Part shown: piece after piece, positions 3,647 to 38,293 of the stretch
Layout of the letters: each line of letters starts with the position of its first letter
Numbering within the stretch: the stretch's first letter is position 1
Source: a virus
Length of the DNA stretch: 40,315 nt
IMG/VR virus record: IMGVR_UViG_3300015371_000091
Coordinates: 1-40,315 of that record
Strand: one strand, 5' to 3'
The notes under the pieces: generated by a model
What the model was told of the DNA's origin: nothing
The model's database searches: none
The model's input: only the letters and a program-made list of their open reading frames with translations
Made by a program: the position numbers and the translations under genes

Positions 3647-3897
3647 GATGCGCGCTCCTCGGCAAACACCCTGATCGCCTGCAGGACGACCCAGCGGGCC
3701 TGGGCAAACGGATCTCTGGCCTCCGACACCGCCATCTCAGTCAGCGTGTCCCACTCCTCGCCGGAGAGGCCGAACGCGACGACGCGGTTGTAGCGCCGCC
3801 GTGGGGAGGCCCCCGCAGGGGGAGGGGCCCCATGGTGGGCCTTCCGCCGGCCCCGCTCGACAGGGTCGGGCGGCGGCATCGTAGTGAGCGTCCCCAT
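3643..3897 (-). CDS. Hypothetical 84-residue protein
   Basis: The ATG at 3897 has GGAGG eight bases upstream and a TGATG overlap with the preceding stop. The N-terminal half is proline- and arginine-rich. The C-terminal half (VVAFGLSGEEWDTLTEMAV, FAQARWVVLQAIRVFAEE) is helical and looks like a small ribbon-helix-helix or helical DNA-binding fold. Not recognised. Confidence 0.6.
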   Translation of the reverse strand: MGTLTTMPPPDPVERGRRKAHHGAPPPAGASPRRRYNRVVAFGLSGEEWDTLTEMAVSEARDPFAQARWVVLQAIRVFAEERAS

Positions 3898-5956: not shown

Positions 5957-7729
5957 TCAGCCGGCCGCGCGGAGGCTCGGGCCAGCATCCGAATGTAGCA
6001 GGCAGAGTGACAGTCTCGTCAAATTGTCACGCCCGCTGCTACGTAGCACCGTGCCCAACGCCGTAACTTCGACCAGATACCGATGGCGCCCGACCGCCGT
6101 CCCGTTCGGAGCCTCCGTCACCGTCACCACGAGCCCGAGCTCGGCCATCAATGCCTGGCGGTCGGCGTCCGTGACGACCGCAAGTGCAGCCCGAACGTCG
6201 CGCCCGAGCGTGAGCAACGCCGCCTCTTCGGACTCGCCGATCCCACGCGGGACCGTCGCTTCGAGCTCACGAAGGTCACGCTCGGACGAGGCGATCTCCC
6301 GACGGAGACGCTGCCTGGTCGCCTCGAAGCTGTCGCGGTCGAGCGGATCGTCGGCCTCGGACCACCGGTCGGTCGCGCGCTGATGGGCCGCTTTCTGCTC
6401 GGTCAGCCGCGCACGCACAAACGCCAGCCGCTCGGCGTGCTCGATGGCCCCGGTGTCGCTCGCCCTGGCGGCAGCGATGGTCTCGCGCATGACGTACTCG
6501 TCGCGGAAGAACGCATCGACGGCCGACCAGACGAGATCCTCGATGCCGCCACCGTCGCTACCTCGTCGCACCCGGTCCGCCGCGACCGGTGGGAGTGTGC
6601 ACCGTTGCGCTCCCGCGCGCTCGGCCTGCTTCCGGTCCTTGCGGGGGCACCAGTAGTACCGATCACGACCCCCGGTCCTGGCCCGTCCGGTGACGGTCTG
6701 CGTCCGCAGGCGTGAGCCGCAGCGTCCACAGACGAGCATGCCGCGCAGGACGAACGGATCGCCGTCGCGCGACTCGGCCGCCCAGGCCGTCGTGTGACGG
6801 CGATGCCGCCCGCTCACGATGGCGCGGAGCTCCTCGACCTCGGCCTGTTCCAGGATGGGCTCGAACTGTAACGTCGTGATACGCGCGTCCTTCTTCGGGC
6901 GCTGCCGCCACTTTCCGTTGACCCGGTACCGCTCGCGCTCGCCGTAGCGGTACTCCCCCCAGATCATGCGATTGGCGAGGATGTGGCGGATCGTGTGTGA
7001 TTCCCAGCGGCCGGCATATGGCCGCCTCTCGCTCGGTCGGAACGATGCTGGCGCGGGGATGCCCTCGGCCTCGAACCGTGCCGCGAGCTGGGCAGGCGAG
7101 AGTGTTCGCAGCTCGCGCAGGCGCCTGACGACGGCCGCTTGCTCCGGGTGGTGGCGGTAGCCGACTGTCCGTGGCCGGGCTCCGGACCGGTCGATCACAC
7201 GCTCCCAGCCGTACGGGAGCGGGCCATTGCCCACCGGCCGCCCGAACTGCTCGACCTTTTCGTACCGGGCACGCATCGAATCCTCGCGGGCCTGGTCGAG
7301 CATGAACTCGGCGACGTCGGCCATGATGGCGCGCTTGAGTCGGCCGGCGGCGTTGTCCTCATAGGTCTCATCGTAGTACCAGATCAGCGCGCCAGCCTCG
7401 TCAAGGAGATGCTCGATCCAGGCTTGCTTGCCGCTCGACCGAGCGAGGCGCGAGACGTTTTTGAGGATGATCGCCTTGATCTCACCGGACTTGATCCGAC
7501 GAAGCTCGGCGTTGATCCCAGCGAGCTCCCAGTCACGGCCGCTGCCCTGCTCGAAATTCTCGCTGACGATGTTCACGCCGAGGAGCGCAGCGGCCTCTCG
7601 CGCTTCGCGCTGTTGGTTTGGCAGGCTATAGCCGTCAGACTCCTGGATCTTGCCGGAGACGCGTCCCCAGAGCGTCGCGGGTAGACCGCGAAACCGCTCG
7701 ATATCGGCCGGCAACGGTACAATGGGCAT
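5957..7729 (-). CDS. int: Large serine recombinase (phage integrase)
   Basis: A 590-residue protein. The ATG at 7729 has GAGGAGG six bases upstream. The catalytic N-terminal resolvase domain (residues ~18-165) carries WGRVSGKIQE with catalytic Ser25, the SLPNQ motif, VSRLARSSGK and an arginine-rich active site. The recombinase domain follows (~175-290; GPLPYGWERV, ANRMIWGEYRYG). Next is a zinc beta-ribbon (LVCGRCGSRLRTQ ... YYWCPRK ... RCTL, ~345-395) and a coiled-coil region (~440-510) that controls directionality in this family. It should integrate and excise the phage between attP and a host attB. The last ~15 codons overlap a candidate attP. The RHH gene lies directly upstream. Confidence 0.95.
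   Translation of the reverse strand: MPIVPLPADIERFRGLPATLWGRVSGKIQESDGYSLPNQQREAREAAALLGVNIVSENFEQGSGRDWELAGINAELRRIKSGEIKAIILKNVSRLARSSGKQAWIEHLLDEAGALIWYYDETYEDNAAGRLKRAIMADVAEFMLDQAREDSMRARYEKVEQFGRPVGNGPLPYGWERVIDRSGARPRTVGYRHHPEQAAVVRRLRELRTLSPAQLAARFEAEGIPAPASFRPSERRPYAGRWESHTIRHILANRMIWGEYRYGERERYRVNGKWRQRPKKDARITTLQFEPILEQAEVEELRAIVSGRHRRHTTAWAAESRDGDPFVLRGMLVCGRCGSRLRTQTVTGRARTGGRDRYYWCPRKDRKQAERAGAQRCTLPPVAADRVRRGSDGGGIEDLVWSAVDAFFRDEYVMRETIAAARASDTGAIEHAERLAFVRARLTEQKAAHQRATDRWSEADDPLDRDSFEATRQRLRREIASSERDLRELEATVPRGIGESEEAALLTLGRDVRAALAVVTDADRQALMAELGLVVTVTEAPNGTAVGRHRYLVEVTALGTVLRSSGRDNLTRLSLCLLHSDAGPSLRAAG
5995..6042. other. attP: Candidate attP inside the 3' end of the integrase gene
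   Basis: A 48-bp imperfect dyad: an 18-bp left arm (GTAGCAG.....GTGACA), a 12-bp centre and an 18-bp right arm (TGTCAC.....CTGCTAC). Thirteen of 18 positions mirror each other. The dyad centre falls on the dinucleotide GT at 6018-6019. Length, dyad form and non-palindromic centre fit large serine integrase attP sites. It overlaps integrase codons ~563-579, so integration would swap the last ~15 residues. Confidence 0.5.
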
Positions 7730-26391: not shown

Positions 26392-26577
26392 CTACTTGCA
26401 GGCGATCTGCTGGGTCTTGCCGTAGAGCTTGCAGCGGCGGTTCCCGCAGCGCGAGCGCACCCAGCGCGTGCCGCCCGGCGCGGACGCTATCCACGACCGG
26501 CAGGCCGGGCAGTAGACCTGGGCCGGCGGCTCCCAGGACTCGGCCGTCGGCTCACGCCAGCTTGTCGATGCGGCCAT
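26392..26577 (-). CDS. Small zinc-finger protein (Com-like)
   Basis: 61 residues, ATG at 26577, overlapping the glycosyltransferase by 26 bases. It carries VYCPACRSWI and RSRCGNRRCKLYGK, a CxxC...CxxxxC zinc ribbon reminiscent of the Mu Com translational activator. Nucleic-acid binding is likely; the target is unknown. Confidence 0.55.
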   Translation of the reverse strand: MAASTSWREPTAESWEPPAQVYCPACRSWIASAPGGTRWVRSRCGNRRCKLYGKTQQIACK

Positions 26578-27649
26578 GACTCGCCTCCGCGATCTGGGCC
26601 CACGCGCTCGGCCATTTCCAGAGGTTCTCTGCCAGAGACCACGTCCGCTCGACGCGCCGCGCCAGCCGACGCGCCATCATCGAGCGAAGCGCCGGCCGCG
26701 CCACGAGATCCGAGAGCGCGCGCTCCCACTCGTCGACCGTCTCGGCGAGGTAGCCCGTCACGCCGTGCTCGATCGTCGCCGCGTAGACAGTCGGCGTCGC
26801 CACCACGGCTGATCCGGCCAGCGCCGCCTCATACGCCTTGATCGGCGACTTGTGGCGGTTGAACGGCTCATCCGAAACCGAGCAGCACGCGATGTCAACC
26901 TCCACGAGCCCGGTCGGGTACCGCTCCAGCGGGAGCCACGGCAGCACCACCAGCCGGTCGGCCGGCACCGCCGCCTTGAGCACCGGCGGCACGTAGCCCT
27001 GAATGACGAACGTCACGTGACGGTCAGTCAACGCCACGCGGCGCCAGGCTTCGGCCATCGCCGCGACGTCGCGGTCCGGGCGCTGGCCGCCGGCCCAGCC
27101 GATCGACGGGGACGGCACGGTGCGCCGAGCCTGACGAAGCACGCCGCGGAACCATGCGACGTCGATCGCGTTCGGCACCACCACGACCGGGCGGTCCGTC
27201 AATCCGCGCACGAGCGTCGCTAAGCGCTGCGTCGAGACGGTCACGCCGTCGCACTGCCGGAGCGTCCAGAGCCGCTGCTGCCGGTCCTCCTCAAGCTGCG
27301 CGGCCGTGCGGCCCCTGTCCTGGCCGAGCTCGACGGCGCGGTGCGAGAGGGCCGGCGTGAACAGGTCGTCGTCGCACTCGTAGACGGTCAGCTTGCCGGC
27401 CCGGCGGAGCATCGCGAACCACGACGCCGCCATGACGCGCTCCGAGAGCGGCCAGGCCATGCGCGCGAGCACGTAGCCGTCGAACGCGGGCGCGACCTGG
27501 CCGAGCAGCGGAGCGGACTTGAAGTCCCAGCCGCACGGGTAGCCGCGCTCCTCCAGCCGCTTGAACGGCTGAAAGATTCTCCACATGCTCGGCCCGGTGC
27601 GATCTCCGACGATCGCGAGCATGGACGGCCCGTCGAGCCGCTCGGCCAC
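26552..27649 (-). CDS. Glycosyltransferase, GT-B fold (GT4-like)
   Basis: 365 residues, GTG start at 27649, one base after the preceding stop. It has YECDDDLFTPAL, GVTVSTQRLATLV, PVVVVPNAIDVAWF, IGWAGGQRPDRD, then FNRHKSPIKAYEAALAGSAVVATPTVYAATIEHGVTGYLA. The last region matches the nucleotide-sugar binding C-terminal half of GT4-type enzymes. It is encoded between portal and protease genes with a GT2-type partner, so virion protein glycosylation or modification of a host surface sugar is more likely than DNA modification. Substrate unknown. Confidence 0.8.
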   Translation of the reverse strand: MAERLDGPSMLAIVGDRTGPSMWRIFQPFKRLEERGYPCGWDFKSAPLLGQVAPAFDGYVLARMAWPLSERVMAASWFAMLRRAGKLTVYECDDDLFTPALSHRAVELGQDRGRTAAQLEEDRQQRLWTLRQCDGVTVSTQRLATLVRGLTDRPVVVVPNAIDVAWFRGVLRQARRTVPSPSIGWAGGQRPDRDVAAMAEAWRRVALTDRHVTFVIQGYVPPVLKAAVPADRLVVLPWLPLERYPTGLVEVDIACCSVSDEPFNRHKSPIKAYEAALAGSAVVATPTVYAATIEHGVTGYLAETVDEWERALSDLVARPALRSMMARRLARRVERTWSLAENLWKWPSAWAQIAEASHGRIDKLA

Positions 27650-31736: not shown

Positions 31737-32127
31737 GTTTCAGGATCTCCTGCGCCTCGGCGAGCGCCTCGGCCTCGACGTCGTCGCCGAGCCCGGCCGC
31801 CTGCACCATCTCGCGGATCTCGTCGGCCAGGTCGATGGTGACACGGCGGCCCCAGTCCTCACGGCGCCGCCGTTCAAGCCAGAGGAATGCTGCGCGCCAG
31901 GAGCCCGCGTCGATCGCCTGGCGGACCTTGACGGTCGCGTACACCTCGGCCTGGGCCTCGGCCTGTATGACAGCGTGACGAAACGCGACGAAATCCCGCA
32001 GGTAGCCCGAGATCCGTCGGCGGTGGATGCCGGCCGCCTCGAACGCCGCCGTCCGCGTGGCGCCCGCCCGGAGCGCGTCGAGGATGACCTTCTCGGTCGC
32101 CGGCGTGAGCTTCGATGGTCTTGCCAT
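31714..32127 (-). CDS. terS: Small terminase subunit (TerS)
   Basis: 137 residues, ATG at 32127 with TGATG overlap. It begins ARPSKLTPATEKVILDALRAGATRTAAFEAAGIHRRRISGYLR, a helix-turn-helix typical of TerS, then helical FRHAVIQAEAQAEVYATVKVRQAIDAGSWRAAFLWLERRRREDWGRR, a pattern common to small terminases. It recognises the packaging site. Confidence 0.85.
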   Translation of the reverse strand: MARPSKLTPATEKVILDALRAGATRTAAFEAAGIHRRRISGYLRDFVAFRHAVIQAEAQAEVYATVKVRQAIDAGSWRAAFLWLERRRREDWGRRVTIDLADEIREMVQAAGLGDDVEAEALAEAQEILKRARNARG

Positions 32128-33020
32128 CAGGCACCCGCCCGTCCATCTATGAGGCGTCGAAGCTCGGCCGATCGGACGTCGCCGATCGCCCGCAACGTCA
32201 TGCCGTACTCATCGACGGCCGGCAGCGTGGCCAAGTCGACGTCGGGGCGGCGTCGGAGCGGCGTGTCGAACCGCCGCCAATTGACGACGTGTTGTGGTCG
32301 ATTCCACCGGCGACGGACGGTCACCACGCCGGGCCAGAGTCGTTCGAGCGCCCGTGCCATCTTCAGCCGTCCGTCACCGGCGTACAGCTCCGCCGTATTG
32401 CCGCCGCGCATCGTGAGCGTCTGGACTTTGTTCGCCATGAATGCGTTGAGCAGCACCGTGCACCACCCACCGGCCAACGCTTGAAGGCAGTAGTCGGTGT
32501 CTTCGTTGTACCGCCCGCGCCAGCGATACGGCAGCGCGTTCATGATGAGCGAGCACGAGTAGACGTGCACGTTCAGCCAGAACGGTGCTCGCGGTGGGCC
32601 GCCGCCGTCCCGCGCGAACTGCTCATAGTTGCATCCGGCCACCGCCACGTTCTCGTAGCGATCGGCGAAGTCCTCGACGACGGCAAGGGCCAGCCCGGCC
32701 ATGCACGGCAAGCGTTTCCCGCCGTACCAGCGACGGAATCGGATGATGTTGTCGTCGAGCTGCCAGTGTCGTGCATGGCCGTCAGCCGAAGCGTGGTCCT
32801 TGATCCAGTTGCGCGCCGGGATCGAGCCGAGCCCGAGATCGGAGAACGGTAGCACCAGCACGCGCGCATCTCCGAAGCGGGCCGCGTACGCGTCCGCTTC
32901 GACCGGCTCGACGACCAGTGAGAACGGCACACCGTCGGCGTCGAGCATCCGAGCCGTCAAGCACCGCTCGGCACGCCCCTTCGATGGGATGTAGACGGGG
33001 TAACGCGGTAGCGTCGTCAC
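32127..33020 (-). CDS. TET-associated-type glycosyltransferase (DNA-base modification candidate)
   Basis: 297 residues, GTG at 33020 with GAGGG five bases upstream. It reads YPVYIPSKGRAERCLTARML, FSLVVEP, VLPFSDLGLGSIPARNWI, ARHWQLDDNIIRF (D89-D90-N91), RYENVAVAG, LNVHVYSCSLIMNALPYRWRGRYNEDTDYCLQ (N172-D176) and MRGGNTAELYAGDGRLKMA. These are the motifs I know for the TAGT family predicted by Iyer and colleagues to glycosylate oxidised bases in phage DNA. No TET/JBP dioxygenase is visible in this genome, so the acceptor base is unexplained. The ParB-like gene is directly upstream, a typical companion. Confidence 0.75.
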   Translation of the reverse strand: MTTLPRYPVYIPSKGRAERCLTARMLDADGVPFSLVVEPVEADAYAARFGDARVLVLPFSDLGLGSIPARNWIKDHASADGHARHWQLDDNIIRFRRWYGGKRLPCMAGLALAVVEDFADRYENVAVAGCNYEQFARDGGGPPRAPFWLNVHVYSCSLIMNALPYRWRGRYNEDTDYCLQALAGGWCTVLLNAFMANKVQTLTMRGGNTAELYAGDGRLKMARALERLWPGVVTVRRRWNRPQHVVNWRRFDTPLRRRPDVDLATLPAVDEYGMTLRAIGDVRSAELRRLIDGRAGA

Positions 33021-33021
33021 G

Positions 33022-33672
33022 TCAGCCCTCGAAGCGCACGGACGTCTGGTCGACCCGCTCGGCCGGCGGCGGCCAGCGTATCGAGACGGTGTGCTCGCCG
33101 AGCGCGAGGCCGACGAGCTCGGCGAATCGCGTTCGGTCGTCGGCATCCGCGAACGTCACCGTCAGTCGAAGCGTCGTCTCGGACGGCTCGTACTCAGGTA
33201 GCCCCACCCACTCGGCGGCCGCGTCCATGTCGGCAATCTCCGAAGCCGGCCGCGTCACCATCACCAGATTCGCCAGCATCATCTCGTCATAGCCGGTCCC
33301 GAGCAGCGCCCCCAGGTCGACCGAGCCGACCTCGCGGAGTAACTCCGAGAGAGAGCGATCGTCGCTCTCCACCAGGTGCGAAATCTCGTTGTCGCCAATC
33401 AGGAGTTTGATGGCGCGCGGATCGTCCGGGTCGATGTCCAGCCGGACGGCCGGCATCTCGGCGTACCCGAGGCGACGCGCCGCCTCGACCAGTCCATGAC
33501 CGGCTAGGATCGTACTGTCACGCGCGATCACGACCGGGCGATAGACGCCGTGCTCGACGAGCGACGCTTTCAGGTGCTCAATCTGGTCATCCGGGTGCGC
33601 GCGGTAGTTTCGCGGGTGGGGCCGAAGATCATCGAGCCGTACTGCCTCGGTCACATACGACGGAGCCGTCAC
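33022..33672 (-). CDS. ParB-like nuclease-domain protein
   Basis: 216 residues, GTG at 33672 overlapping the AbrB-like gene's stop (GTGA). Residues ~10-100 are a ParB/Srx fold: VRLDDLRPHPRNYRAH, IEHLKASLVEHGVYRPVVIA, STILAGHGLVEAARRLGYAEMPAVRLD. No partition-type HTH follows. The C-terminus (SETTLRLTVTFADADDRTRFAELVGLALG) is a small alpha/beta domain. In phages such proteins accompany DNA-modifying enzymes, which agrees with the adjacent glycosyltransferase. Confidence 0.85.
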   Translation of the reverse strand: MTAPSYVTEAVRLDDLRPHPRNYRAHPDDQIEHLKASLVEHGVYRPVVIARDSTILAGHGLVEAARRLGYAEMPAVRLDIDPDDPRAIKLLIGDNEISHLVESDDRSLSELLREVGSVDLGALLGTGYDEMMLANLVMVTRPASEIADMDAAAEWVGLPEYEPSETTLRLTVTFADADDRTRFAELVGLALGEHTVSIRWPPPAERVDQTSVRFEG

Positions 33673-33896
33673 GGCTTCCCCCTCCGCGCGTTGCGCGCCG
33701 CGAGCTGCGCGGCGCCCCCGTACAACGGTTTCCAGTGTACATCGACCGTCGGCGGCGAGGGATCGAGCACGACGAGCAGCGACCCGGCCGACGTCGGGAT
33801 GACCTCGATCACGGCGCCGCGCACGAACCCGAGCTCGCGGGCGCGGTCGCCGAGGTCGACGAGGCCGCTCGGCAGGACGTGCGTTTTCCGCGTCAT
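33669..33896 (-). CDS. AbrB/SpoVT-like small DNA-binding protein
   Basis: 75 residues, ATG at 33896, overlapping both neighbours by 4 bases. RKTHVLPSGLVDLGDRARELGFVRGAVIEVIPTSAGSLLVVLDPS fits the swapped-hairpin AbrB fold (sense strand, short helix, 'G..v.v' strands). It could be a local regulator. Its C-terminus is basic. Confidence 0.5.
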   Translation of the reverse strand: MTRKTHVLPSGLVDLGDRARELGFVRGAVIEVIPTSAGSLLVVLDPSPPTVDVHWKPLYGGAAQLAARNARRGKP

Positions 33897-34114
33897 CCGA
33901 GATCCTCCAGCCTGACGCCCGAGAGACGGAGCGCGAGCGTTGCCAAGTCCTGCGGGAGCTCGACGGCGTCGGCCGCCTGGCTCGACGTGGCGGCTCGGCG
34001 CACGGTCCACCCGTCCTGCATAGCCGGCCACTCGAACCAGCGGTCGGGCCCCGAGAACCAGCCCAGGTACTCGCGACCACCCGGCACGAGGTAGACGACG
34101 ACATCCGGACTCAC
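33893..34114 (-). CDS. Hypothetical 73-residue protein
   Basis: GTG start at 34114 overlaps the upstream stop (GTGA). It reads SPDVVVYLVPGGREYLGWFSGPDRWFEWPAMQDGWTVRRAA, aromatic and beta-rich, then helical. Not recognised. Confidence 0.6.
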   Translation of the reverse strand: MSPDVVVYLVPGGREYLGWFSGPDRWFEWPAMQDGWTVRRAATSSQAADAVELPQDLATLALRLSGVRLEDLG

Positions 34115-34474: not shown

Positions 34475-34778
34475 GCGACGGCGACACGGCGGATGTGGGG
34501 AGCACACGAAGATTGGTCGCCGGCATTCTGCTATTGGGATACAACGCCCGTTCGGCCGGCGGCATGCATACACTGGGCATCAAGAACCCGTCAGCCGGCG
34601 GCACGTTCAGTTTGGGCAGCAGACCGCGCGCGGCCGTCGGCACGAGCGGCGTGGGGATCACATCGGCGACGGCCGGCGGCATGCTTCGTCTGGGCATCAA
34701 GTCGTAGCTGGCCGCCATGTCACACCAGCACCGGCGCGGCAACCTTGTCGTGGGGAGCATCATCACACCGGCCGCGCA
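34475..34778 (-). repeat. TIGR-type guide array 1 (7 units, 39-bp period)
   Basis: On the plus strand each unit is a 12-nt edge (consensus CGGCCGGCGGCA), a 9-nt spacer A, a 9-nt loop (consensus TGGGCATCA) and a 9-nt spacer B. Loops start at 34496, 34535, 34574, 34613, 34652, 34691 and 34751; the first six are exactly 39 apart and the last follows a 33-nt edge inside the tas gene's 3' end. A/B pairs in order: CGGCGGATG/CACGAAGAT, TTCTGCTAT/ACGCCCGTT, TGCATACAC/AGAACCCGT, CGTTCAGTT/GACCGCGCG, CGAGCGGCG/CATCGGCGA, TGCTTCGTC/AGTCGTAGC, ACCTTGTCG/TCATCACAC. On the minus (tas) strand the loop reads TGATGCCCA, with a box C-like TGATG. Confidence 0.85.
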
Positions 34779-35595
34779 CATACTGCCACTCGACCCACAT
34801 CCCTTTCGTGAGCTCCTTCATCGCGTACCGACGCGCCGCGCTATGCAGATGCGCCGAGGTCTCGGCCCCGGTGCTCGCGTCCGTTTTGACGCACGGGAGC
34901 ACCCGTCCGGTCTTGCTCTTGTGCGTCTGACCCATCGGGCAACCGGACGGGCCGATCCGCGGGCGTGCCAGATACTCCCCTTTCTTGCGGTCGTAGGCGG
35001 CGCGGTACGGCCCGCCGGCCCCGACCTTGACGATGGCGTCGCCGATCTGGGCGCAGACCACGCGGCCCTGCGGCGCGTACGCCGAGCCCTTCGTGCCAGG
35101 CGAGCAGTCCGGGTGGTGGTCGGTCGTGCACGACGGCGTGCAGGTCCGGAGGTGGCCGAACGTGCAGTTCGTGTGCGTCCACGGCACGCCCTTCTCGCGC
35201 CTCGGGGCGTGGCCGTCCACGACGTGCAGCCCGAGGTACTTCCAGAGCGACGAGACCATCCCGAAGCGGTCGAGCGAGCCGGTGACGCCGAGCAGCCGCG
35301 CGAAGCCCGGCAGCCCAATGCCGCGCTGCTCGCCGATCCAGCCAGCGAGCGGGTGCTGCTTGACGAGCGAGACCAGCACCCGGTCAATGGAGCCCTCGAT
35401 CTTCTCGTAGGCCGTCACCACGTCGCGGGCCGGGCCAGCGTACTCGCCGAGCCCGTCGCGCTCGATCGCGGCGACGCGGTTGCCGGCCGCGATCCGCTCC
35501 TTTTGGACGTCCCACAACTGCCGCGCGTAGTGGCCGAGCAGCGCGTGCAGCCAGTCCAGGTCGACCTCCTGGGGCACATGCGGCTTGGGTGTCAT
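34720..35595 (-). CDS. tas: TIGR-associated Tas protein (TasA-like, Nop/IS110-related, no nuclease domain)
   Basis: 291 residues from ATG at 35595, which lies inside array 2; GTG at 35577 is an alternative. Residues ~10-85 are helical (LDWLHALLGHYARQLWDVQKERIAAGNRVAAIE). The core at ~88-125, EQRGIGLPGFARLLGVTGSLDRFGMVSSLWKYLGL, matches the helical segment shared by Nop domains of box C/D proteins and the transposase-20 part of IS110. A Cys/His cluster (~144-164, CTFGHLRTCTPSCTTDHHPDC) looks like a zinc insert. The end, GPYRAAYDRKK and HSAARRYAMKELTKGMWVEW, is IS110/Nop-like. No HNH or RuvC motif is seen. Flanked by three guide arrays, it probably binds tigRNAs and guided DNA without cutting. 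Confidence 0.75.
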   Translation of the reverse strand: MTPKPHVPQEVDLDWLHALLGHYARQLWDVQKERIAAGNRVAAIERDGLGEYAGPARDVVTAYEKIEGSIDRVLVSLVKQHPLAGWIGEQRGIGLPGFARLLGVTGSLDRFGMVSSLWKYLGLHVVDGHAPRREKGVPWTHTNCTFGHLRTCTPSCTTDHHPDCSPGTKGSAYAPQGRVVCAQIGDAIVKVGAGGPYRAAYDRKKGEYLARPRIGPSGCPMGQTHKSKTGRVLPCVKTDASTGAETSAHLHSAARRYAMKELTKGMWVEWQYVRGRCDDAPHDKVAAPVLV

Positions 35596-35944
35596 GTGCT
35601 CAACGGCCCCGTTGGTCGATGCGGCAGGTGGCGCCTGGATGTCAAGCCGCCGATGGCCGCTGGTCGCGTGGCCGTGGGGCACCTGGGCGTTGGGTATCAC
35701 GCCGCTGTTGGCCCCGTTGGTCGGCGCGGCACTCGCGACCTGGGTAGCAGCTGAACCATGGCCGCGCATGTCGTCGTGGGGCGTGGCTCTACTGGGTGTC
35801 AAGTCCGTGTCGGCCCCGTTGGCGTGCGCGGCACGAGAAGCTTGGGTAACAAGTGAAGCGTGGCCGCGCGCGTCGTGGTCGGGACGGGCACCTGGTCCTT
35901 GGGTACCACACGTCATATGGCCCTTCCCGTTCATGGCGTCGGCA
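35571..35944 (-). repeat. TIGR-type guide array 2 (7 units, alternating edge lengths)
   Basis: This fills the 335-base space between tas and the 35931 gene. Loops (consensus TGGGTNNCA) start at 35586, 35636, 35691, 35741, 35793, 35843 and 35900. Edges alternate between a 23-nt form (GGCCCCGTTGG..., ending GCGGCA) and a 25-30-nt form (TGGCCGC..., ending GGGGCA). A/B spacers: CATGCGGCT/TGTGCTCAA, GGTGGCGCC/AGCCGCCGA, CCTGGGCGT/CGCCGCTGT, CTCGCGACC/GCTGAACCA, TGGCTCTAC/AGTCCGTGT, CGAGAAGCT/AGTGAAGCG, CCTGGTCCT/CACGTCATA. All spacers and loops are 9 nt. The reading frame open through this stretch upstream of tas is a by-product of the repeats. Confidence 0.85.
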
Positions 35945-36557
35945 CCTCAAGCGGGATCTGTCGGCTCGCCGGCTTGCAGATCTTGAAGAGCCGCAGGAGC
36001 ATCGGCTCATCGAAGACGTCGCCAACGTGCTGGGTCTCGTCGAGCTTCTCGGCGATCGCGCGGAAGTACTGGGCCGAGTGCTCGAAGCCGAGCGCGTCCG
36101 AGCGGTAGCTCCCGAACGCCATCAGGCACTGACGACGGGTCATGAAGCGGAGCGTGACCCATTCGTCGCCGAGCTTGTACTGGCAGTCCAGCAGCGAGGT
36201 TTTGCGCAGCAACGACGTGTCGATCACGCGGCGGGGCTCGGCGGCGTCGAGGATCGCGGGGTCGGCGTCCGGGCGGTCGCCGACCAGCGCCGGCCGCACG
36301 TAGACGATCGGCTGCTGCCCCGAGCGGCTGACGGGGCCGGCGCGGTTGGCGCCGTTCCACTGCCGCCAGAGCATGCCGACCAGTTGCGCGCCGTGCAGGC
36401 GGGCCAGCGCCTCCACCTGGCCGGCACGCTCGATCTCCGCGTACACCGCCACGAACGCGGCGTTCGGGGACGCCCCGTCGGCGATCCGGTCCTGGACAGC
36501 AGCGACGATGTCTGATCGGGTCAGCTCGCTCGGCGCTGGCAGCGGGTCGAGAGCCAT
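35931..36557 (-). CDS. Hypothetical 208-residue protein between guide arrays
   Basis: ATG at 36557 with AGGAGG four to five bases upstream. It reads ALDPLPAPSELTRSDIVAAVQDRIADGASPNAAFVAVYAEIERAGQVEALARLHGAQLVGMLWRQWNGANRAG, VYVRPALVGDRPDADPAIL, TSLLRKTSLLDCQYKLGDEWVTLRFMTRRQCLMAFGSYRSDALGFEHSAQYF. The second half is a pattern of phage proteins of unknown function. Its place between arrays 2 and 3 may be chance or may mean a TIGR-accessory role; nothing in the sequence decides. Confidence 0.7.
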   Translation of the reverse strand: MALDPLPAPSELTRSDIVAAVQDRIADGASPNAAFVAVYAEIERAGQVEALARLHGAQLVGMLWRQWNGANRAGPVSRSGQQPIVYVRPALVGDRPDADPAILDAAEPRRVIDTSLLRKTSLLDCQYKLGDEWVTLRFMTRRQCLMAFGSYRSDALGFEHSAQYFRAIAEKLDETQHVGDVFDEPMLLRLFKICKPASRQIPLEVPTP

Positions 36558-36566
36558 GGGGCCTCC

Positions 36567-36759
36567 TGGTGGTGTCGCGCGGCACTCGCTTGGTGGATGT
36601 CAGCAGCCCTGTGGCCGCACGGGAGTCCTGGGTGGCAGGTGAGGAACGGCGGCACGTCATTTTCGGAGAGCAAGCGTGACACGGCCGCACGGCTTGTGTG
36701 GGAAGCACTACCCCGACGGCGGCAAGTACCACGCGGGTAACACGGGCCCACTGGCCGCC
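36567..36759 (-). repeat. TIGR-type guide array 3 (5 units, exact 35-bp period)
   Basis: Units have an 8-nt edge (consensus YGGCSGCA), 9-nt spacer A, 9-nt loop (consensus TGGGNNNCA) and 9-nt spacer B. Loops start at 36594, 36629, 36664, 36699 and 36734, exactly 35 apart. A/B spacers: CTCGCTTGG/GCAGCCCTG, CGGGAGTCC/GGTGAGGAA, CGTCATTTT/AGCGTGACA, CGGCTTGTG/CTACCCCGA, AGTACCACG/CGGGCCCAC. The array occupies nearly the whole gap between the VRR-NUC gene (36772) and the 35931 gene's ribosome site. Confidence 0.85.
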
Positions 36760-36771
36760 GTTACCTCCCTC

Positions 36772-37074
36772 CTAGCGCAAGATGCGCTCGACGATGTTCC
36801 ACTGCGAGGGACGCCATTGATACACCTCCTGGCCGCACTGGTCGAGCGCGTCGAGCCACGCGAGTTGATCCTCCGACGCGCGTCCCCGCTCGGACTTCAA
36901 TTCTGCGAAGATCACCCTCGGACGACGGACCATCACCAGGTCGGGGAACCCGGCGCGCGACTTCCGCGAGTCGTGAACGTGGTAGACCCGCCAGCCCATG
37001 AGCTCGGCGTAGCGGATCACCGACGCCTGGAACTGCGCCTCGGTCTCGGTGAAATACAGCGCCGAGACGTTCAT
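36772..37074 (-). CDS. VRR-NUC domain nuclease
   Basis: 100 residues, ATG at 37074 with GAGG upstream. TETEAQFQASVIRYAELMGWRVYHVHDSRKSRAGFPDLVMVRRPRVIFAELKSERGRASEDQ shows the PD-(D/E)XK pattern of VRR-NUC enzymes: E12, D45, E58-x-K60. Phage members are thought to act as Holliday-junction or replication-repair nucleases. It lies between the Gp37/68 gene and TIGR array 3. Confidence 0.85.
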   Translation of the reverse strand: MNVSALYFTETEAQFQASVIRYAELMGWRVYHVHDSRKSRAGFPDLVMVRRPRVIFAELKSERGRASEDQLAWLDALDQCGQEVYQWRPSQWNIVERILR

Positions 37075-37081
37075 GATCGCC

Positions 37082-38293
37082 TCACCCCGGGTACTCGCGG
37101 AGCATCGGGTGAAGATTCGGCTTCAGGTAGATCCGGCAGCCGGCGTCCTGCGCCTGGTGGACGAGATGCTCGACCCATTCCCACGGTGGCTGAAACTCCG
37201 GCACTTGACTATTCGCGGACTGGGCACCGATCACGACCCAGTCGAACATATCGAGCGCCGAGAACGTCAGTCGCTCCAGCAGGGGCTCGCACGAGAGCCA
37301 CTTTACGCCGGCCTGGACATCACGAAACGACCGTTCAGCCGTCGCCACTCGCGCCTGGCGATCGACGGATGCGCCGACCCATGCCTGATCGGGCCAGTCC
37401 TGCTGGGCGAGCCGCTGCGGGAACTTCGTCAGGAACAGGTAATTCCATTGGGGCGACGCGACGACCTCAGAGAAGACGGCGTCGATCCAGTCCTGCGGTA
37501 CCCATTTTCCGAACAGGTCGGTCATCGAGCCGACGAAGACGTTCTGCCACCGGACGGCTTCCCACATGGCCGCGTCAGTCGCATCACCGACGCCGTGATG
37601 GCGCGCAACCAGGCGCTCGCCGGCAGCGTCGCTGCGCGCATCGGAGAGTCGCGTGTGACGCGCTGCATGGAGCCGAGCCGGCCGAAAGACCGGCGTGAAC
37701 CGCTGATCTTCCGCAAGGTCCGTGTAGTACCGCTGGGCCAGGACGCGAGCGTAGCAGTAGCCGCAGCCGTGGTCACAGCCAGTGACGGGATTCCACGTCC
37801 AGGCCGCCCAGTCGACGCGGTCACCCGTCTGGTTGAATGTCGTGCTGCTACCGGACGGCGCCATCTCGATGATCCGTCGCCGCTCTCCGTCGGGAAGTCG
37901 GTTCCAGGCCTCGACGGTGTAGTACGCCGCGACATCCGCCGCGTCCTCCTCAGCCGACCGTGACTTTCTCGACGAGCTCGATATCGACTTGAGCGCCGCA
38001 TCCAGCGTCAAAACCGCAGACTCACTGCGGTTTTGGGCCACGATCTCATCTCGCCTTTGAGCGACTTTCATGTAGACCTGGGCCGTCCGGTCCGAGCCGT
38101 CGAAGTGGTCGGCCAGCCACGGCAGCCAGGCGCCGTGCGGGACGTTCGCTTTCGCTTCCAGGAGAAGCTCTCCCGCTCGAACCGCATGAGCGAAGCTCGA
38201 CGACACAGCGTCACACACGGCCTGGTGTTCTCGGTTGATCTGCTCAGCCAGGACATCGAGCGGCGAAAGCACCGTCAGAACGGAAAGGCTCAT
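37082..38293 (-). CDS. DUF3102 - phage Gp37/Gp68 (DUF5131) fusion, radical-SAM-like three-Cys protein
   Basis: 403 residues, ATG at 38293 with AAGGA six bases upstream and ATGA overlap to TcmP. Residues ~10-90 (LAEQINREHQAVCDAV, HAVRAGELLLEAKANVPHGAWLPWLADHF, RTAQVYMKVAQRR) match DUF3102. Residues ~155-400 are the Gp37/Gp68 family: DRVDWAAWTWNPVTGCDHGCGYCYAR with C173, C177, C180 (CxxxCxxC, an iron-sulfur and SAM-type motif), FVGSMTDLFGKWVP, YLFLTKFPQRL, VGASVDRQARV, WLSCEPLLERL, VVIGAQS. The biochemical reaction is unknown. The adjacent TcmP is its known partner family. The DUF3102 fusion looks unusual. Confidence 0.85.
   Translation of the reverse strand: MSLSVLTVLSPLDVLAEQINREHQAVCDAVSSSFAHAVRAGELLLEAKANVPHGAWLPWLADHFDGSDRTAQVYMKVAQRRDEIVAQNRSESAVLTLDAALKSISSSSRKSRSAEEDAADVAAYYTVEAWNRLPDGERRRIIEMAPSGSSTTFNQTGDRVDWAAWTWNPVTGCDHGCGYCYARVLAQRYYTDLAEDQRFTPVFRPARLHAARHTRLSDARSDAAGERLVARHHGVGDATDAAMWEAVRWQNVFVGSMTDLFGKWVPQDWIDAVFSEVVASPQWNYLFLTKFPQRLAQQDWPDQAWVGASVDRQARVATAERSFRDVQAGVKWLSCEPLLERLTFSALDMFDWVVIGAQSANSQVPEFQPPWEWVEHLVHQAQDAGCRIYLKPNLHPMLREYPG

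What the first reader, a model, noticed from the sequence alone, without database searches (positions are those of the whole stretch)
34475..36759. A TIGR-Tas type RNA-guided system with three distinct guide arrays
Seen directly: 19 units in three arrays, each with a constant 9-nt loop repeat flanked on both sides by a variable 9-nt segment and separated by constant edges. The 9-9-9 spacing holds in every unit while the edge length varies (12, 23-30, 8 nt). The gene between the arrays has the Nop/IS110-type core EQRGIGLPGFARLLGVTGSL. Established: published TIGR-Tas systems of phages use tandem interspaced guide RNAs of about 36 nt with two spacers and a Nop-domain Tas protein related to IS110 and box C/D proteins. 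Inference: this is such a system in a temperate high-GC phage.
Basis: partly seen in the sequence, partly recalled or inferred. Interest (0 to 1): 0.97.

Follow-up and report, generated by a model that had tools for sequence, protein, structure and literature searches.

The report
Phage RNA-guided system with mixed guide arrays
This phage carries a real member of the recently described TIGR-Tas family of RNA-guided DNA-binding systems, with 19 two-part guides in three arrays around a nuclease-free TasA gene; one array has hairpin-flanked guides and two have compact ones, and its laboratory-grown relatives swap the guide letters while keeping everything else.

Summary
Nineteen units of 9-nt spacer, ~9-nt loop and 9-nt spacer lie in three arrays (7, 7, 5), all on the minus strand like the gene between them; simulated sequence never gives more than one. 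A covariance model built only from other phages recovers 14 of them as its 14 best hits in the genome. The protein is a Tas protein: sequence match to TasR, fold match to TasH and TasR, then IS621 and Nop5. It has no nuclease domain, so it is TasA. First, the units are stem-flanked with unit-specific, covarying stems; relatives are stem-loop TIGR arrays, and two arrays here have stems merged into shared 12- and 8-nt edges, a mixture of the two published array types. Second, a conserved partner gene (phrog_4604 family) sits upstream of TasA in its actinobacterial-phage relatives (49 of 50 records). In 11 near-identical mycobacteriophages spacers differ by 58% per pair of phages while genes differ by 3%. 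No target was found. RNA processing and DNA binding are inferred from the published system. New variant of a known kind.

The parts
34720..35595 (-). tasA: 291-aa solo Nop-domain Tas protein (open frame extends upstream to an ATG at 35934, through array 2)
   Evidence: phmmer to TasR 9mty E 7.3e-10; phrog_4285 E 2.8e-30; predicted fold Z 17.6 to TasH, 16.9 to TasR
34478..34778 (-). TIGR array 1, 7 units, mostly 12-nt shared edges (compact type); unit 1.1 lies inside the 3' end of tasA
   Evidence: covariance model from other phages hits units 1.1, 1.2, 1.4, 1.6 at E 3e-5 to 0.003
35568..35927 (-). TIGR array 2, 7 units, 23-30-nt edges with unit-specific stems of 5-7 pairs (stem-flanked type); unit 2.7 overlaps the assumed tasA start
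   Evidence: covariance model hits all 7 units, E 1e-5 to 0.02
36576..36761 (-). TIGR array 3, 5 units, 8-nt edges (compact); edges alternate TGCCGCCG / TGCGGCC[G/A] so that the two flanks of each unit stay complementary
   Evidence: covariance model hits units 3.1, 3.3, 3.5, E 4e-6 to 0.02
35931..36557 (-). partner gene X, 208 aa, upstream of tasA, stop codon overlapping an ATG (ATGA) of the extended tas frame
   Evidence: remote homologue of phrog_4604; phrog_4604 present in 44/45 viral records and 5/5 bacterial genomes that carry the actinobacterial TasA, 0/14 controls

Best explanation
This is a TIGR-TasA locus of a temperate tailed phage. The operon (partner gene X, tasA, three guide arrays) is transcribed on the minus strand; each unit is bound by a TasA dimer through its two box C (CCA/CCG) and box D (UG/CG) pairs and trimmed to a short RNA of about 36 nt carrying two 9-nt guides. 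Guide A pairs with one strand and guide B with the other strand of an 18-bp DNA site. As TasA lacks a nuclease, the complex most likely binds, unwinds and bends its site and so blocks transcription or replication of a rival element or a host gene, possibly with help from protein X. The guides change fast because the targets change. The two compact arrays look like stem-flanked units whose neighbouring stems have overlapped into one shared edge. Shown here: protein family and fold, unit anatomy, covarying stems, hypervariable spacers in relatives, conserved partner. Inferred from the published system: RNA processing and DNA binding. Pure inference: what is targeted, what X does, and that the effect is silencing.
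For: Tas identity: (alignment starts at residue 14 of the model and residue 110 of TasR, so the nuclease part is absent). Units beyond chance; found by a model built without them. Covarying stems: in 34 units of four relatives 91.8% of cells paired against 34-51% when slid, 8 of 9 pairs with two-sided changes; own flanks pair better than swapped flanks in L002, L003, L018, L019 (p about 1e-4 or less) and array 2 (p 0.006). Guides variable: spacers 0.1-0.25 bits per column against 1.5-2 for most box positions; 58% pairwise difference against 3% for tas in near-identical phages. Partner. Published mechanism: PMC12045711.
Against: No target was found for any guide: none in the phage itself or sister phages above the mate-shuffled control, chance-level exact hits in viral contigs, none in 297 mycobacterial genomes for one guide. 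No RNA data exist for this locus. Stem pairing in array 3 alone is not significant (p 0.064). The Tas model has moderate confidence (pLDDT 72.8) and its cysteine-rich insert is not resolved. The model of X gave no fold match.
Confidence: 0.8

Rival explanations
1. The units are Tas-binding RNA elements used only for control of the phage's own genes (for example feedback on tas mRNA, as units overlap the ends of tas or lie inside it), and the variable 9-mers do not guide anything.
For: Units overlap the tas 3' end in the window, L002 and L003 and lie inside the tas reading frame in actinobacterial phages; no targets found.
Against: Spacers differ far more (58%) than the genes around them (3%) in near-identical phages while stems and boxes hold; neutral filler would not outrun the surrounding genes so strongly. 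Related Tas proteins are shown RNA-guided (PMC12045711).
Confidence: 0.12
2. TasA guides do not silence but help the phage's own recombination: the dimer bends an RNA-chosen site and assists the large serine integrase, setting where the phage integrates or excises.
For: The window has a serine integrase; the published authors raise this idea because of the 180-degree bend of target DNA.
Against: 19 different fast-changing guides are hard to square with one attachment site; no guide matches own DNA above control; the integrase gene is about 27 kb away from tas.
Confidence: 0.08
3. An IS110-type transposase with a bridge RNA and its remnants.
For: IS621 recombinase is the next best fold after Tas proteins (Z 14.3); PHROG 4285 is labelled transposase.
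Against: The N-terminal RuvC/DEDD part is missing (alignment starts at residue 13-14), the match to TasH/TasR is clearly better, and tandem two-spacer units are not a bridge RNA.
Confidence: 0.01

Closest known systems
TIGR-Tas, stem-loop array type with TasA (Faure et al. 2025, Science, PMC12045711)
   Same: Solo Nop protein; two 8-12-nt spacers between box C and box D; palindromic unit-specific flanks instead of constant edges; several subarrays around the gene.
   Different: Here only array 2 has separate stems, and they are short (5-7 pairs); arrays 1 and 3 have merged 12- and 8-nt edges; the loop is nearly constant in length and in its end letters; a partner gene is conserved; units overlap the tas gene.
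TIGR-Tas, dual-repeat array type (FpTasA, TaTasR, SpTasH)
   Same: 9-nt spacers, 9-nt UG...CCA loop, 8-12-nt edges in arrays 1 and 3.
   Different: Edges of array 2 are 23-30 nt; edges vary in compensating pairs; no clear terminator after the array; no nuclease domain (unlike TaTasR and SpTasH).
TasA loci of cluster-A1-like mycobacteriophages and Gordonia phages (phrog_4285 with phrog_4604)
   Same: Same gene order, unit geometry and bulged-C stem; hypervariable spacers.
   Different: About 30% protein identity; stems of 8-16 pairs; in Gordonia phages two units sit inside the coding sequence of the Nop domain.
IS110/IS621 bridge-RNA recombinases and archaeal box C/D Nop5
   Same: Nop/coiled-coil fold.
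   Different: No DEDD catalytic domain, no fibrillarin-type partner found.

Membership tests
TIGR-Tas (whole family) | Tas protein with Nop domain of the TIGR type | tested here: met
   phmmer E 7.3e-10 to TasR; top eleven Foldseek hits are all TasH/TasR; Z 17.6 and 16.9
TIGR-Tas (whole family) | Tandem units of two ~9-nt variable spacers around a loop, with UG...CCA box D/C motifs that pair | tested here: met
TIGR-Tas (whole family) | Spacers variable, repeats conserved | tested here: met
   0.21-0.25 bits per spacer column against mostly 1.3-2 for box columns in the window; near-identical relatives
TIGR-Tas (whole family) | Array processed into ~36-nt tigRNAs that direct DNA binding | not testable with these tools
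   needs RNA sequencing and binding assays
TIGR dual-repeat subtype | Edge and loop repeats of 8-12 nt | tested here: inconclusive
   met in arrays 1 (12 nt, one edge 33) and 3 (8 nt); not in array 2 (23-30 nt); so the locus is not filed as a pure dual-repeat system
TIGR dual-repeat subtype | Array typically followed by a rho-independent terminator | tested here: inconclusive
   one weak terminator-like site about 60 nt beyond array 1; shuffles give 1.1 per region
TIGR stem-loop subtype | Unit-specific palindromic flanks forming a stem | tested here: met
   array 2 p 0.006, relatives p about 1e-4 or less; covariation; folds with z about -1 to -3 in the window and -2 to -4.5 in relatives; array 3 alone p 0.064
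TasA | No nuclease domain N-terminal of the Nop domain | tested here: met
   model aligned from residue 14 to TasR residue 110 and TasH residue 65; caveat: the open frame extends 113 codons upstream through array 2, with chance 0.11-0.17 of being open, and that stretch is guide array
TasR / TasH | RuvC or HNH domain | tested here: not met
tasParB operon | ParB-like gene in one operon with tasA | tested here: inconclusive
   ParB-like gene 33022-34104 lies one ORF downstream, but its homologue in relative G002 is about 18 kb from tas and none was found in the G004 and G005 contigs
IS110 transposase | N-terminal DEDD/RuvC catalytic domain | tested here: not met

The most novel reading that the evidence does not exclude
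TasA with protein X forms a two-component RNA-guided DNA-silencing complex, a subtype in which guides are cut from the operon's own messenger RNA (units overlap or lie inside the tas coding sequence), so guide production and effector synthesis limit each other; and the dual-repeat TIGR arrays arise from stem-loop arrays by overlap of neighbouring stems, caught here half-way in one locus.
Probability: 0.3. Interest if true: 0.85.

Novelty: new variant of a known kind. Interest (0 to 1): 0.62.

Why it matters
The published TIGR work could not say what TasA does, where spacers come from or how the two array types are related, partly because most loci were metagenomic. This locus shows both array forms side by side with compensating edge changes that suggest how one can become the other. 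Its relatives sit in 82 sequenced mycobacteriophage records of the safe laboratory host Mycobacterium smegmatis, where guides turn over while everything else stays, and they come with a conserved partner gene the paper did not report in its main text. That makes TasA function, guide turnover and partner role directly testable at the bench.

Tried and rejected
Self-targets and targets in relatives: nothing above the mate-shuffled control in either spacer order. Exact 18-bp targets (0-2 bp gap) in IMG/VR: 0, 0, 2, 0, 4 stretches, about what chance gives; 297 mycobacterial genomes: none for the one guide tried. The order spacer A + reverse complement of spacer B was deduced by me from the published 8-nt 3' overhang and C-5 rule. 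Array 2 lies in an open frame with tas, but the chance of that is 0.11-0.17 and it is not open in L002, L003 or L018, so I do not claim it is translated here. The ParB neighbour as tasParB: not supported in relatives. X: no Pfam or PDB fold match. The wide alignment was too divergent for a collection scan; one search folded wrongly placed segments and is ignored (redone); the tree has one IS110 row from a doubtful frame and is used only for the window clade. Near-relatives of the window TasA in bacterial genomes: none found.

Full report
Setting. The window is a complete virus record of 40,315 bases with a 123-base direct terminal repeat. It carries terminase, portal, tape-measure, capsid and endolysin genes and a large serine integrase, so it is a tailed and probably temperate phage. 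Its host is unknown.

The observation. On the minus strand I find 19 units of the form GGC(C)[A/G] - 9 nt - TGNNNCCC[A/G] - 9 nt - TGCC: seven in 34478-34778, seven in 35568-35927, five in 36576-36761. A loose pattern for this unit hits 18 times in the 2.36-kb region, never on the rest of the minus strand, once on the plus strand, and at most once in 2000 simulations of the region. A covariance model built from 34 units of four other phages, with no window sequence in it, gives its 14 best window hits all inside the three arrays (E 4e-6 to 0.02); the first hit elsewhere is at 0.06.

The protein. The 291-aa product of 34720-35595 matches TasR (PDB 9mty) by sequence at E 7.3e-10 and PHROG 4285 at E 2.8e-30. 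A model made from five relatives (mean pLDDT 72.8) matches TasH at Z 17.6, TasR at 16.9, the IS621 bridge recombinase at 14.3 and archaeal Nop5 at 8.3. The alignment starts at residue 14 of our protein and residue 110 of TasR, so the nuclease part is absent: this is TasA. The clade has a cysteine/histidine-rich insert (C144, H148, C152, C156, H160, H161, C164, invariant in five phages) that looks like a zinc site; the model does not resolve it.

The units are stem-flanked. In all four relatives with several units (L002, L003, L018, L019; 49-61% identical Tas) the two flanks of each unit pair with each other through a stem with one bulged C, and better than with flanks of other units (p about 1e-4 or less). 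In the window the same test gives p 0.006 for array 2, 0.011 for array 1 and 0.064 for array 3. On the 34-unit alignment 91.8% of cells are paired against 34-51% when the partner is slid, and 8 of 9 pairs show two-sided changes (the units in this alignment were chosen for stems of at least 5 pairs, so the percentage leans high). In array 3 the 8-nt edges alternate TGCCGCCG and TGCGGCC[G/A], so that each unit still has complementary flanks although neighbours share the edge. [quoted passage not shown] Here both forms stand in one locus: array 2 with separate short stems, arrays 1 and 3 with merged edges. As the relatives, including the two deepest (L019, L018), have stem-flanked units, merging is probably the derived state; edges as short as 13 nt occur in L002 and L003 too, so it is a continuum.

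The spacers behave as guides. Spacer columns carry 0.1-0.25 bits against 1.5-2 for most box columns. More distant relatives in well-known phages give the decisive test. TasA with the same unit geometry occurs in Gordonia, Mycobacterium, Rhodococcus and Arthrobacter phages, in 54 viral contigs and 5 actinobacterial genomes, and in 82 records of mycobacteriophages of M. smegmatis. In 11 near-identical ones the tas gene differs by 3.0% per pair and three of the five stem pairs by 1-5%, but the spacers by 58% (two units whose stems also come in different versions show 19-27%). In three Gordonia phages homologous units share stems and have 0-3 of 9 spacer letters in common.

A partner gene. The gene upstream of tasA (35931-36557, X) has homologues at the same place in all window-clade relatives with enough sequence and is remotely related to PHROG 4604 (hhalign P 7e-4; direct hmmscan only E 0.28). 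PHROG 4604 is found in 44 of 45 viral records and 5 of 5 bacterial genomes that carry the actinobacterial TasA, and in none of 14 control genomes. The Science paper states that TasA lacks clear associations with other proteins apart from an occasional ParB. The ParB-like gene near our locus is not kept near tas in relatives.

Guides inside the gene. In the window, unit 1.1 (covariance-model E 3e-4) lies within the last codons of tasA, as homologous units do in L002 and L003 with other spacers. In Gordonia phages LonelyBoi, Spooky and BENtherdunthat several units lie in an N-terminal extension of tas and two more in an insert in the middle of the Nop domain, so the same RNA must serve as message and guide precursor. 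For the window's array 2 the frame is open too, but this is expected by chance in 11-17% of cases, so I make no claim for it.

Mechanism and limits. From the published TasR/TasH work I infer that TasA dimers bind each unit, that an unknown RNase trims it, and that spacer A and spacer B pair with opposite strands of an 18-bp site, with order spacer A + reverse complement of spacer B. Without a nuclease the likely effect is blocking. I looked for targets in the phage and eight relatives or sister genomes, in 11 mycobacteriophages, in all IMG/VR contigs for five guides and in 297 mycobacterial genomes for one guide, and found nothing above chance. The prey is therefore unknown. Competition with other elements fits the fast spacer change best, but that step is inference.

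Verdict. The finding is a new variant of the TIGR-TasA kind, of interest because it joins the two array types, adds a conserved partner, and connects to laboratory phages in which the function can be tested.

Noticed in passing
L028:38239-38340 and 37489-37800 (Gordonia phage LonelyBoi); L029, L030 likewise: TIGR stem-loop units inside the tas coding sequence, two of them in an insert within the Nop domain; homologous units keep stems and change spacers.
   Followed up: partly
L068-L078 (cluster-A1-like mycobacteriophages), about 350 bases upstream of tas: Units exchanged and altered between near-identical phages; some spacer pairs shared by several phages, others differ by 1-3 letters, so change seems to be both by swap and by point mutation. 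Unit U2 has an 18-nt loop that is itself a hairpin.
   Followed up: partly
L026:1439-1484 (+); same site in L018 about 3790-3840: One unit in the relative G004 is inverted relative to all the others and lies in the C-terminal extension of its tas frame (covariance-model E 5e-7, opposite strand).
   Followed up: no
window 5957-7729 (-): Large serine recombinase/integrase (phrog_95, E 6e-59).
   Followed up: no
window 33022-34104 (-): ParB-like protein one ORF downstream of array 1; homologue in relative G002 is about 18 kb away from tas.
   Followed up: partly
window 32127-33146 (-) and 26552-27649 (-): TET-associated glycosyltransferase (PF20691) and a second glycosyltransferase (phrog_7162): possible DNA base hypermodification or host glycan change.
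   Followed up: no
window 36772-37074 (-) and 37082-38293 (-): VRR-NUC nuclease and a DUF3102-DUF5131 fusion directly upstream of array 3.
   Followed up: no
tasA residues 144-164 (window about 35104-35166, -): Cys/His-rich insert C-x3-H-x3-C-x3-C-x3-HH-x2-C, invariant in the window clade and absent at that place from the actinophage TasA proteins: likely zinc site.
   Followed up: no
genus-wide search around G055: Six of 297 mycobacterial species genomes carry a strong TasA match, the other weak matches look like IS110.
   Followed up: no
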